Below are positions 18,312 through 24,300 of a DNA stretch of 64,000 nt, one piece after another. The notes under the pieces were generated by a model. It was given only the letters and a program-made list of their open reading frames with translations, was not told the origin of the DNA and did not search any database. This DNA is from Phorcus lineatus (Eukaryota > Mollusca > Gastropoda > Trochida > Trochidae): NCBI GenBank assembly GCA_921293015.1, contig OV121083.1, positions 28,698,908 through 28,762,907 of the forward strand, given 5' to 3'. Each line of letters starts with the position of its first letter. The first letter of the stretch is position 1. Both the position numbers and the translations under genes were made by a program.

Positions 18312-21300
18312 CTATAAAAAAAAACAATGCACCTCTAGCAATATTTATTACGATGTAGAATAACATCATTTGTCACAATATTAAAATCTAATAGAACATC
18401 ACTTATATGTAAACAAAACAGAAATTAAATGTTACCTACCTAATCTAGAGTTCGGTTTCAAGAATACAGCCAAGTCCAACATATCTTCTTCCCTGGAACA
18501 CAAACGAAAAAATGAAATATAAAATGAATCACTGGAAGAAGCAAGACTGTCAGTAAAGATGACAGTCAAGTCTAAAGAAGCAAGACTGATCAGTAAAGAT
18601 GACAGTCAAGTCTAAAGAAGCAAGACTGTCAGTAAAGATGACAGTCAAGTCTAAAGAAGCAAGACTGATCAGTAAAGATGACAGTCAAGTCTATAGAAGC
18701 AAGACTGATCAGTAAAGATGACAGTCAAGTCTAAAGAAGCAAGACTGATAAGTAAAGATGATAGTCAAGTCTAAAGAAGCAAGACTGATCAGTAAAGATG
18801 ACAGTCAAGTCTAAAGAAGCAAGACTGTCAGTAAAGATGACAGTCAAGTCTATAGAAGCAAGACTGTCAGTAAAGATGACAGTCAAGTCTAAAGAAGCAA
18901 GACTGATCAGTAAAGATGACAGTCAAGTCTATAGAAGCAAGACTGTCAGTAAAGATGACAGTCAAGTCTAAAGAAGCAAGACTGTCAGTAAAGATGACAG
19001 TCAAATCTATAGAAGCAAGACTGATAAGTAAAGATGACAGTCAAGTCTAAAGAAGCAAGACTGATCAGTAAAGATGACAGTCAAGTCTATAGAAGCAAGA
19101 CTGATCAGTAAAGATGACAGTCAAGTCTAAAGAAGCAAGACTGATCAGTAAAGATGACAGTCAAGTCTATAGAAGCAAGACTTCAGTAAAGATGACAGTC
19201 AAGTCTATAGAAGCAAGACTGATCAGTAAAGATGACAGTCAAGTCTAAAGAAGCAAGACTGATCAGTAAAGATGACAGTCAAGTCTATAGAAGCAAGACT
19301 GATCAGTAAAGATGACAGTCAAGTCTATAGAAGCAAGACTGTCAGTAAAGATGACAGTCAAGTCTATAGAAGCAAGACTTCAGTAAAGATGACAGTCAAG
19401 TCTATAGAAGCAAGACTGATCAGTAAAGATGACAGTCAAGTCTAAAGAAGCAAGACTGATCAGTAAAGATGACAGTCAAGTCTAAAGAAGCAATACTGTC
19501 AGTAAAGATGACAGTCAAGTCTAAAGAAGCAAGACTGATCAGTAAAGATGACGGTCAAGTCTATAGAAGCAAGACTGATCAGTAAAGATGACAGTCAAGT
19601 CTATAGAAGCAAGACTGATCAGTAAAGATGACAGTCAAGTCTAAAGAAGCAAGACTGATCAGTAAAGATGACAGTCAAGTCTAAAGAAGCAATACTGTCA
19701 GTAAAGATGACAGTCAAGTCTAAAGAAGCAAGACTGATCAGTAAAGATGACGGTCAAGTCTATAGAAGCAAGACTGATCAGTAAAGATGACGGTCAAGTC
19801 TATAGAAGCAAGACTTCAGTAAAGATGACAGTCAAGTCTAAAGAAGCAAGACTGATCAGTAAAGATGACAGTCAAGTCTATAGAAGCAAGACTGATCAGT
19901 AAAGATGACAGTCAAGTCTAAAGAAGCAAGACTGATCAGTAAAGATGACAGTCAAGTCTAAAGAAGCAAGACTGTCAGTAAAGATGACAGTCAAGTCTAA
20001 AGAAGCAAGACTGATCAGTAAAGATGACAGTCAAGTCTAAAGAAGCAAGACTTCAGTAAAGATGACAGTCAAGTCTAAAGAAGCAAGACTGATCAGTAAA
20101 GATGACAGTCAAGTCTAAAGAAGCAAGACTGATCAGTAAAGATGACAGTCAAGTCTAAAGAAGCAAGACTGTCAGTAAAGATGACAGTCAAGTCTAAAGA
20201 AGCAAGACTGATCAGTAAAGATGACAGTCAAGTCTATAGAAGCAAGACTTCAGTAAAGATGACAGTCAAGTCTATAGAAGCAAGACTGATCAGTAAAGAT
20301 GACAGTCAAGTCTAAAGAAGCAAGACTGATCAGTAAAGATGACAGTCAAGTCTATAGAAGCAAGACTGATCAGTAAAGATGACAGTCAAGTCTATAGAAG
20401 CAAGACTGTCAGTAAAGATGACAGTCAAGTCTATAGAAGCAAGACTTCAGTAAAGATGACAGTCAAGTCTATAGAAGCAAGACTGATCAGTAAAGATGAC
20501 AGTCAAGTCTAAAGAAGCAAGACTGATCAGTAAAGATGACAGTCAAGTCTAAAGAAGCAAGACTGATCAGTAAAGATGACAGTCAAGTCTATAGAAGCAA
20601 GACTGATCAGTAAAGATGACAGTCAAGTCTATAGAAGCAAGACTGTCAGTAAAGATGACAGTCAAGTCTATAGAAGCAAGACTTCAGTAAAGATGACAGT
20701 CAAGTCTATAGAAGCAAGACTGATCAGTAAAGATGACAGTCAAGTCTAAAGAAGCAAGACTGTCAGTAAAGATGACAGTCAAGTCTAAAGAAGCAAGACT
20801 GTCAGTAAAGATGACAGTCAAGTCTAAAGAAGCAAGACTGTCAGTAAAGATGACAGTCAAGTCTAAAGAAGCAAGACTGTCAGTAAAGATGACAGTCAAG
20901 TCTAAAGAAGCAAGACTGTTAGTAAAGATGACAGTCAAGTCTATAGAAGCAAGACTGATCAGTAAAGATGACAGTCAAGTCTATAGAAGCAAGACTGTCA
21001 GTAAAGATGACAGTCAAGTCTATAGAAGCAAGACTGTCAGTAAAGATGACAGTCAAGTCTAAAGAAGCAAGACTGTCAGTAAAGATGACAGTCAAGTCTA
21101 AAGAAGCAAGACTGTCAGTAAAGATGACAGTCAAGTCTATAGAAGCAAGACTGATCAGTAAAGATGACGGTCAAGTCTATAGAAGCAAGACTTCAGTAAA
21201 GATGACAGTCAAGTCTATAGAAGCAAGACTGTCAGTAAAGATGACAGTCAAGTCTAAAGAAGCAAGACTGTCAGTAAAGATGACAGTCAAGTCTAAAGAA

Positions 21301-24300
21301 GCAAGACTGTCAGTAAAGATGACAGTCAAGTCTATAGAAGCAAGACTGTCAGTAAAGATGACAGTCAAGTCTAAAGAAGCAAGACTGATCAGTAAAGATG
21401 ACAGTCAAGTCTAAAGAAGCAAGACTGTCAGTAAAGATGACAGTCAAATCTATAGAAGCAAGACTGATCAGTAAAGATGACAGTCAAATCTATAGAAGCA
21501 AGACTGATCAGTAAAGATGACAGTCAAGTCTAAAGAAGCAAGACTGATAAGTAAAGATGACAGTCAAGTCTAAAGAAGCAAGACTGATCAGTAAAGATGA
21601 CAGTCAAGTCTATAGAAGCAAGACTGATCAGTAAAGATGACAGTCAAGTCTAAAGAAGCAAGACTGTCAGTAAAGATGACAGTCAAGTCTATAGAAGCAA
21701 GACTGTCAGTAAAGATGACAGTCAAGTCTAAAGAAGCAAGACTGTCAGTAAAGATGACAGTCAAGTCTAAAGAAGCAAGACTGTCAGTAAAGATGACAGT
21801 CAAGTCTAAAGAAGCATTCTGTGTTCTTTCTGAAGTAGTCCTGGAGCCATATGCCAACCCTTTTGTCTTGATCTTCCTACAAATTTGGAAAAGAAGGATT
21901 CTCTCATCATTGCAAAGTTTCGTATTAACAGTTCTGTCAACTGTCATGGAACCTGGTTTCAAAGGGATCTTTCTAACTTTTTAATCAAATATTAATGGTG
22001 CATCACTTTAAATCCTCGTCTGTGAGATTGTTTTGCCCTCTCGATTACAAAGTTTTGATTGAAAAGAATGTTTTGTCGTGAATAATGGTGTCAATTTCAA
22101 ATATGATGGCAAACTACAGCATGTGACGGTAGTCAAGATGCCACAGAAGCTTGTATTTGATTGGTTCAGAACTAACTTTTTACCCTCAGTTCAAAGTTCA
22201 ACAAAGGTCAGCTGAACATGACACCAATCAGCAATTCCATAAGTGTGCAAAATTTCACTGAAAAACACCCAGATTATTTTAGAAAACGGACTGAATGGAC
22301 AAAATGCCTCTATATACCCTACTTACGTCTTTACCAGCCACTCTTGGCTTGTGATGATATGACTAGTAGACCTACTTTTCATCTGGTTCTGCAAGACACT
22401 CCATGAAGTCCTCGTGTACGTAGACGTGGCAGGTGGAGCATGCTAGGGAGGCTTCACAGGCACCTTAAACACATCAGTAAAACACGTCTTAAAAGAATTC
22501 CCGGCACAAAATCTTCTATAAACCATCTAAAATAACGTCAATTGGCCTGTATAACAGGGTATTATACTTATAAAATGGGACAGGAGTGTCTGTCTCTCAG
22601 CCATTGAGAAAAGAATTTGATAATTGTAAATTACTTGTTACATGTCGCATCACTTGCATTACATTAAATTTTGCAACACATCAGCAATTGATACATCAAA
22701 TGAAAGATAATTCTTTCTTCTTTATGATGTTGTAAAAATATGAAACATGTGCCAGCATCTAAATGTTTAAGAATTTCACTTCCTGCATCAAGCCCCCCTC
22801 TTGGTTTACAGAGAGTTACCCCCAAATGAAGTGTACTTATCCTGGTACCCGTGTTCTAGGGGTTGTAGTTGTACATCTAGTTATAAGTGAATCCTTGAAT
22901 TAAAAAGGTTATTTCAAGGCATGAATATATAAGTTTCCTAAATCAACCACAACCTTATTGAGTTTTTTTTAACCAAAACTGAATTTGTATGACCATAATT
23001 TGTATCATTAAAACTATACTGTAGATATGCTCTCAATTTAAGATATCAGGGAGAATGAAGGAGAAGCAATACTTACCTTCTATTTCAATCCCATATCGAT
23101 GAGCTAAATACATTGCATTGTCACCAACTTTACCCCTGACTGGGGTCCTATTGCCATTCTTGTCAATGTAAACAATGTTGACTCTGTTGAGAGAAATGGT
23201 AAGCTGTCAAAAATAAAGCCAATGGCTCTGTACCTCATCAGGCTATCCATAAATTACTTCACAACTGGTCACAGGGTCCACATGAGAGCTGCAACAAGAT
23301 TATCAAATCCCAACTAGCTGAACAGTCTGTACACAAAATTTGAGCTTTATGTTTTTGAAAAAGTAGACTAAATGTTTTTAGGATGCAGCCTCTGTGGTGA
23401 GGTCACAGGATCAGAAATTAAAAATTAATAATTTGATTCAGCTAAGGACTCTGTATATATAAGGTTTCACATTTCTATGAATTTTGCTTGTGGAAAAAAA
23501 GATGAAAATAGGTTTTATAGGGCATAGCCCTAATGTCCAATCTTAAGGTCAATGTAACACCAAACCAATTTATCATATAATCCCCATTAACTATGAAATC
23601 TGTACACATATTTTAATTTTCTAGGCTTTTCTTCTTTGGAAGGGAGACAATAAAAAGTTAATAAGCTGTGGCCCCTAAGGAGTCTGAACACATGTTTTCA
23701 AATTCTACGCATTTTGCTTGTGGAGAAGAAGATTAGAATAGATTTTCATGAAGTGGCCCCTGTGTCACCAAATCTAAAAATTAGAATCCACATCAGCTAA
23801 GGAGTTTGTATACAAGGTTTAAGTATTCTTAGCCTTTTGCTTCTGGAAAAAATGAAAATAGGTTTCAAGTGCATGGCCACTTGTCCCCCTTACAATTATC
23901 TGCATGAGTGGGAAATCACATTTATCATCTTGGAAGGATGCCAAGAGTATAAAATAACCATACACTTGTACCCCCCCAAAATGCATAAAGAACCGAAATA
24001 ACTAGAAGTATGTGCATGTGATGCACACTGATGTCCCCCTTCCAAACTTTTAATCCAACCTGATCATCTTGTTGCCACTTATACCAGAAACAATCCATAC
24101 CAAACATATAATAAAAAGGTTAATATATTAGCATCAATGAACTTGACATAATAATGACTCATGAAATATACAAGTTCAATGGTGCATAAGGAAGAGTTTT
24201 ATATATTGTCAACTTCTTTACTGTGGGGAATGTGACATTTGATACTCACACAGTCATCAAATATCATAAGTAGCATCTACAGCCCCCAATATGCATCAAG

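What the first reader, a model, noticed from the sequence alone, without database searches (positions are those of the whole stretch)
18534..21817. About 80 repeated 3' splice-site-like motifs on the sense strand of FDX2 intron 4
On the FDX2-sense (minus) strand each unit reads a branch-point-like CTGAC or CTGAT, then the pyrimidine-rich TCTTGCTTCTTT or TCTTGCTTCTAT, then AG. So the intron ends in a 3.3 kb ladder of decoy acceptors that stops only about 40 bases before the real exon 5 acceptor. Such an array could bind U2AF/SF1 in bulk, slow or regulate splicing, or create cryptic exons in an essential iron-sulfur gene. The motif is seen directly; any effect is inference.
Basis: partly seen in the sequence, partly recalled or inferred. 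Interest (0 to 1): 0.72.

Follow-up and report, generated by a model that had tools for sequence, protein, structure and literature searches.

The report
Intron minisatellite with splice-site lookalikes
One intron of a mitochondrial iron-sulfur gene (FDX2) in an animal genome holds 83 copies of a 38-40 base repeat that happens to resemble a splice-acceptor signal; it looks like an ordinary single-locus repeat array, and nothing found here shows that it controls splicing.

Summary
The sequence observation holds. The array fills 85% of a 3,883-nt intron and ends 40 nt before the real acceptor. In this 958-Mb genome I found the unit at this locus only.

The decoy-ladder reading is weak. The 83 copies are one sequence event, amplified. 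Of random 40-mers from this window made tandem, 12-21% carry an acceptor at least as good. Of 12 minisatellites in 200 kb sampled elsewhere, 3 (human-like matrix) or 8 (T-rich matrix) are comparable ladders. Units score below the median of 14 real acceptors from this genome. The array has no usable donor and no AG|GT, and all 83 acceptors would lead to an early stop codon. In predicted folds the branch-like A and the AG are mostly paired.

The most credible decoy is the CAG at the array edge (18532), 9.5/7.9 bits, which would add 13 codons in frame.

Best explanation: a locus-specific minisatellite with incidental acceptor likeness. No RNA data were available; they would decide.

The parts
18534..21817 (-). 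Minisatellite array: 83 units of 38/39/40 bp; consensus on the FDX2-sense strand GACTTGACTGTCATCTTTACTGATCAGTCTTGCTTCTTTA
18493..22375 (-).
   Evidence: donor AAA|GTAGGT, acceptor TTCCAG|GG
18493..18494 (-). True exon 5 acceptor AG, scoring 11.4/11.8 bits
   Evidence: gapless protein alignment across the junction
18532..18533 (-). AG of the CAG at the array edge, the strongest decoy (9.5/7.9 bits), 39 nt upstream of the true acceptor; its use would add a net 13 codons in frame
22376..22463 (-). FDX2 coding exon upstream of the array (exon 4)
18440..18492 (-). FDX2 coding exon downstream of the array (exon 5)
18208..18311 (-). FDX2 last coding exon with stop codon
23077..23183 (-). FDX2 coding exon with VNIVYID...IEIEG
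32628..32775 (-). Probable FDX2 first exon with N-terminal leader (MALPVV...KTAIQ), judged by eye; its phase does not fit the exon at 23183, so at least one exon between them was not located

Best explanation
The feature is a locus-specific minisatellite that expanded inside FDX2 intron 4, probably by replication slippage or unequal exchange. Its T/C-rich sense strand happens to read like a weak-to-middling 3' splice site once per unit. The intron is most likely removed normally. U2AF should prefer the stronger true acceptor, whose branch site should lie in the 39 nt between the array-edge AG and the true AG (AG-exclusion logic, recalled and inferred). The unit's core, GACTGTCA-7 nt-TGACAGTC, is an inverted repeat; such a hairpin may have helped the array expand (inference). 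Shown: repeat anatomy, no second locus found, one long exact block duplication, acceptor scores, absence of usable donors. Inferred: neutrality, expansion mechanism and normal splicing.
For: The unit was found at this locus only: a 22-base core with up to 3 mismatches gives 95 places, 83 in the array (0-2 mismatches) and 12 elsewhere (all 3 mismatches), against 10 for the reversed-pattern control; a DNA search gave 33 matches, all inside the array (the tool calls its counts lower bounds). A block of at least 350 bases repeats exactly 1,067 bases away, and TRF also fits a 237-bp period. Minisatellites are common in this genome: 16 arrays (period 15-250, at least 120 bases), 7,172 bases summed (two overlap slightly) in a 200,000-base sample, longest 1,750. 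Acceptor likeness is common among them: 3 of 12 (human-like matrix) or 8 of 12 (T-rich matrix). 12-21% of genomic 40-mers made tandem do as well, and so do 24-40% of dinucleotide-shuffled units. No usable donor, no AG|GT, and 83 of 83 array acceptors lead to a stop after 7 or 13 codons. An 8-bp inverted repeat is rarer than acceptor likeness: 57 of 5,000 genomic 39-mers made tandem and 30 of 20,000 mononucleotide shuffles have one.
Against: The array is longer than the 16 sampled and the other three in the window with at least 2.5 copies. It lies in the sense orientation and ends 40 nt from a true acceptor. Units outscore the true exon 4 acceptor (2.5/4.6 bits) in the same gene, so weak sites are evidently usable here. 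All 83 unit ends keep the AG. A 480-nt stretch of the sense RNA folds far better than shuffles (z -9.26), so structure is not excluded, though tandem repeats make shuffles a lenient control. No RNA evidence was available for or against, and neutrality was not tested by population or sister-species data.
Confidence: 0.8

Rival explanations
1. Decoy-acceptor ladder: array units bind U2AF/SF1 unproductively, slow exon 4-5 splicing or cause detention of intron 4, and so tune FDX2 output with array length.
For: 83 acceptor-like sites, the common ones at 7.2-7.4 bits, within the lower range of 14 real acceptors. CTGAC or CTGAT branch-like elements occur 71 times. Published decoy exons bind U2AF at decoy 3' splice sites and promote retention (PMC12017769, passages read).
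Against: The published OGT decoy has 5' splice sites, and blocking them makes splicing constitutive (PMC12017769, passages); the array has no usable donor. The branch-like A (79 sites) and the G of AG are mostly paired in local folds (0.956 and 0.97; array mean 0.571), while the 26 nt up to the true AG average 0.22 (not the same measure, naked-RNA prediction). Comparable ladders are common in random tandem units.
Confidence: 0.07
2. Edge decoy: the CAG at 18532, formed by the last unit and flank, is used at low frequency and gives an FDX2 isoform with a net 13 extra residues ([14 protein letters not shown] in place of one K).
For: It scores 9.5/7.9 bits, above 10 of 14 (human-like) or 5 of 14 (T-rich) real acceptors. 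The 39-nt extension keeps the frame without stops.
Against: The true acceptor scores higher in both matrices (11.4/11.8). An in-frame length has a one-in-three chance. No RNA data.
Confidence: 0.12
3. RNA-binding-protein sponge: the intron RNA carries 211 UCUU and 84 CUUCU motifs and could titrate a PTB-like protein, as PNCTR does for PTBP1 in human cells.
For: UCUU 64 per kb against 6.3 elsewhere in the window; CUUCU 25.6 against 1.4; YUCUYY 14.3 against 3.9. PNCTR precedent (PMC6224606, passages read).
Against: A spliced intron is normally short-lived (recalled). Only 47 YUCUYY here, against 2,178 YUCUYY/YYUCUY in PNCTR. Motif density follows from repeating one pyrimidine-rich unit.
Confidence: 0.03
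4. The array works as DNA or as structured RNA: clustered transcription-factor sites, or an inverted-repeat core that matters for the locus or transcript.
For: 108 TGACAG on both strands, a motif recalled as TALE/MEIS-like; inverted-repeat core with z -4.6 in the 39-mer and z -9.26 for a 480-nt stretch.
Against: Only 27 of 82 full units keep the perfect 8-bp inverted repeat, and the indels at columns 24-25 that break it have no matching change on the other arm. No chromatin data.
Confidence: 0.04

Closest known systems
ABCA7 intron 18 VNTR (human; PMC5954066, passages read)
   Same: Intronic minisatellite of similar unit size (25 bp) next to a coding exon, with a splice signal in the unit. There the VNTR begins with the exon 18 donor, and retention of one unit is seen as a cryptic product.
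   Different: ABCA7 carries donor motifs and its length correlates with exon 19 skipping and, inversely, with expression (unit retention itself did not change with length). Here the motif is acceptor-like, the true acceptor lies outside the array, and no RNA or length data exist.
Decoy exons in detained introns (OGT intron 4; PMC12017769, passages read)
   Same: Weak 3' splice-site-like sequences inside a long intron.
   Different: The OGT decoy has both 3' and 5' splice sites and depends on the 5' sites; the array has no usable donor.
PNCTR, tandem-repeat RNA that recruits PTBP1 (PMC6224606, passages read)
   Same: Tandem pyrimidine-rich motifs on one strand.
   Different: PNCTR is a nuclear RNA with 2,178 YUCUYY/YYUCUY motifs; this is intron sequence with 47 YUCUYY.
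Other minisatellites of the same genome (L009-L028, window 48771-49604)
   Same: Same kind of arrays; 3 or 8 of 12 sampled, by matrix, are acceptor ladders too.
   Different: Shorter (up to 1,750 bases); their position relative to genes was not determined.

Membership tests
Intronic minisatellite (VNTR-type array) | Head-to-tail units of 10-100 bp, many copies, high identity | tested here: met
   83 units of 38-40 bp, 96% matches
Intronic minisatellite (VNTR-type array) | Within an intron of a gene | tested here: met
   Between FDX2 exons, gapless protein match across the junction
Intronic minisatellite (VNTR-type array) | Copy number varies among individuals | not testable with these tools
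   One assembly only
Decoy exon of a detained intron | Decoy 3' splice sites | tested here: inconclusive
   Acceptor-like, below the median of 14 real acceptors but above 5 (human-like) or 2 (T-rich) of them
Decoy exon of a detained intron | Decoy 5' splice site | tested here: not met
   Best donor in the array sense strand -1.2 bits, four real FDX2 donors 6.25-11.95 (matrix recalled)
Decoy exon of a detained intron | Intron is detained in nuclear RNA | not testable with these tools
   No RNA data
Recursive (ratchet) splice site | AG|GT junction | tested here: not met
   0 AGGT in the array sense strand
RBP-sponge repeat RNA (PNCTR-like) | High density of a known RBP motif on a stable RNA | tested here: inconclusive
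   UCUU density raised about tenfold; stability not testable
Known structured RNA family | Rfam match at gathering score | tested here: not met
   0 matches in the window

The most novel reading that the evidence does not exclude
A length-variable ladder of 83 acceptor decoys acts as a splicing rheostat for an essential iron-sulfur gene: longer alleles hold more U2AF and delay or detain intron 4, the acceptor-side mirror of the donor-bearing ABCA7 VNTR.
Probability: 0.05. Interest if true: 0.65.

Novelty: new member of a known kind. Interest (0 to 1): 0.2.

Why it matters
As a repeat it is ordinary. If RNA data showed array-length-dependent splicing, it would be an acceptor-side counterpart of the ABCA7 donor VNTR and a natural multi-dose test of how decoy 3' splice sites compete with a real one. 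As it stands it is mainly a caution: a motif repeated 83 times in a tandem array is one observation, not 83.

Tried and rejected
Transposon origin: within the window, 21818-22375 and 18313-18533 (the latter includes exon 5) match only themselves at E 1e-3. The two flanks searched separately hold no inverted-repeat pairs and only short two-copy direct repeats. Between the 60-base flanks of the array the longest shared word is 6 bases direct and 7 inverted, none at the array borders on both sides, so no clear target-site duplication or terminal repeat. The genome-wide search with the flank did not complete, so a dispersed element is not fully excluded. Coding array: the units give open stretches of 83-151 aa on both strands, some including flank, an expected by-product of runs of 39-bp (13-codon) units. 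Known structured RNA: no Rfam match. The hairpin is real for the 39-mer (z -4.6), weaker for the 40- and 38-mers (z -2.2 and -1.6), without compensating changes. Higher-order pattern of unit types: the best lag is 5 units with 0.31 identical neighbours, above the 99th percentile of shuffles (0.30) but below their maximum (0.34); lag 6, which TRF's 237-bp period would suggest, gives only 0.18, so a regular higher-order repeat is not established. Literature: intronic minisatellite plus splice acceptor (no papers), minisatellite plus intron, cryptic splice and branch point (one paper), intronic VNTR and pre-mRNA splicing (two papers), minisatellite plus intron plus mollusc (11 papers, 8 listed), FDX2 plus intron plus splicing (29 papers, 6 listed): only these listings were seen, and no listed title or abstract start concerns such an array. 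led to the three papers of which I read passages. The species is not identified; the search word 'mollusc' was my guess and comes from no call.
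Full report
What is there. On the minus strand, between two exons of FDX2, window 21817-18534 is a tandem array of 83 units: 38 bp (8 units), 39 bp and 40 bp, differing mainly by ACTGA-C-AGTC, ACTGA-TC-AGTC or ACTGA-AGTC and by TTTAG or TATAG. In 82 aligned units only 8 of 40 columns vary at all. The intron is 3,883 nt, so the array is 84.6% of it. The gene call is sound: the exons 23183-23077, 22463-22376, 18492-18440 and 18311-18208 translate to a protein that matches 'Ferredoxin-2, mitochondrial' (PDB 8rmc_I, E 3.2e-53, 116 aligned residues), without a gap across the junction that brackets the array. 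That supports 18493 as the true acceptor. A shorter fragment alone fell just under Pfam Fer2's cut-off (20.7 against 21 bits).

Checking the motif. There are 83 GCTTCT[T/A]TAG ends. The motif contains an AG a few bases after the branch-like A.

Is it more than chance? As a repeat, certainly. As an acceptor ladder the right unit of count is one: the motif arose once and was copied. With two acceptor matrices (recalled from memory, approximate), the common units score 7.2-7.4 (human-like) and 6.5-6.9 (T-rich). Elsewhere in the window an equally good AG occurs once per 349-584 nt. A random 40-mer from the window, made tandem, does as well on one strand or the other in 360 and 407 of 3,000 draws (human-like, for the two main unit types) and 481 and 623 of 3,000 (T-rich); dinucleotide shuffles of the unit do so in 706 to 1,198 of 3,000. 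In 200 kb sampled from two other contigs of the same genome there are 16 arrays (7,172 bases summed); of 12 with at least 2.5 copies, 3 (human-like) or 8 (T-rich) are ladders at the same threshold in at least half their copies. The other three window arrays with at least 2.5 copies give 1 of 3.

How good are the units as acceptors in this genome? Ten HSP70-family exons (edges assigned by eye) and four FDX2 exons give 14 real acceptors: median 8.6 (range 0.1-13.7) human-like and 8.8 (4.0-11.8) T-rich; position -3 is C in 11, T in 2, A in 1. Units beat 5 of 14 and 2 of 14. The edge CAG at 18532 is the best candidate: it beats 10 of 14 and 5 of 14, and would insert a net 13 codons in frame.

What could an array acceptor do? 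The array holds no usable donor (best -1.2 bits on the sense strand; four real FDX2 donors 6.25-11.95) and no AG|GT. So an internal cryptic exon within the array is unlikely; a 5' extension of exon 5 remains possible, and all 83 such extensions meet a stop after 7 (80 of 83) or 13 (3 of 83) codons. The OGT decoy exon depends on its 5' splice sites (PMC12017769, passages). In local 200-nt RNA folds the branch-like A (79 sites) is paired at 0.956 and the G of AG at 0.97, the TTGCTTCT tract at 0.388, the array mean being 0.571; the 26 nt up to the true AG average 0.22 in one 161-nt fold. A 480-nt stretch folds with z -9.26. These are predictions for naked RNA, and shuffles are a lenient control for tandem repeats.

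Origin. The unit was found only at this locus in the 958-Mb genome: 33 DNA matches, all in the array, and 83 of 95 pattern places, the other 12 at the 3-mismatch level, where the reversed control gives 10. The tool warns that such counts are lower bounds. An exact block of at least 350 bases recurs 1,067 bases away. No clear target-site duplication or terminal repeat borders the array. The unit's core is an 8-bp inverted repeat, found in 57 of 5,000 genomic 39-mers made tandem, so it is rarer than the acceptor likeness, though chosen after the fact; 27 of 82 full units keep it perfectly and the indels that break it are uncompensated. That gives no support for selection on RNA structure and leaves a hairpin-assisted slippage origin as an inference.

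Comparison. The nearest published parallel I found is the ABCA7 intron 18 VNTR, which begins with the exon 18 donor and whose length correlates with exon 19 skipping and inversely with expression (PMC5954066, passages). It shows that an intronic VNTR can matter, and that splice signals in repeated units are not new. The present array is an acceptor-side look-alike without RNA evidence.

Verdict. Real, accurately seen, and most likely ordinary. The functional reading is not excluded, and the edge CAG and array length deserve a look if RNA data for this species are at hand.

Noticed in passing
27359-31420 (+): A retroelement with a 1,099-aa frame (zinc knuckle, protease, reverse transcriptase, integrase-like by eye) followed by a 253-aa frame, on the strand opposite FDX2, inside the long stretch between the probable FDX2 exon 1 and the exon at 23183.
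   Followed up: no
48771-49604: 145-bp tandem array, itself an acceptor ladder by the same threshold; a 145-bp array of the same copy number lies at L014 4037-4871. Pieces near 23.4-25.5 kb match this array and 16.3-16.6 kb at about 68-82% identity, with a few short pieces higher.
   Followed up: partly
53136-54575: 170/332-bp tandem array of 8.6 or 4.3 copies.
   Followed up: no
20724-21414 (+): Runs of 39-bp units give open frames up to 151 aa ([13 protein letters not shown] repeats), a by-product of 13-codon periodicity.
   Followed up: partly
3696-5870 (+): Frames that look like a second retroelement (RNase H/recombinase-like by eye) in a GC-rich stretch (0.53-0.57 GC between 3 and 6 kb).
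   Followed up: no
44371-44721 (+): Fragment resembling a Tc1/mariner transposase by eye.
   Followed up: no
22464 (-): The true FDX2 exon 4 acceptor is itself weak (TTTTACTGATGTGTTTAAG|G, 2.5/4.6 bits) with a TACTGAT only about 11 nt upstream.
   Followed up: no
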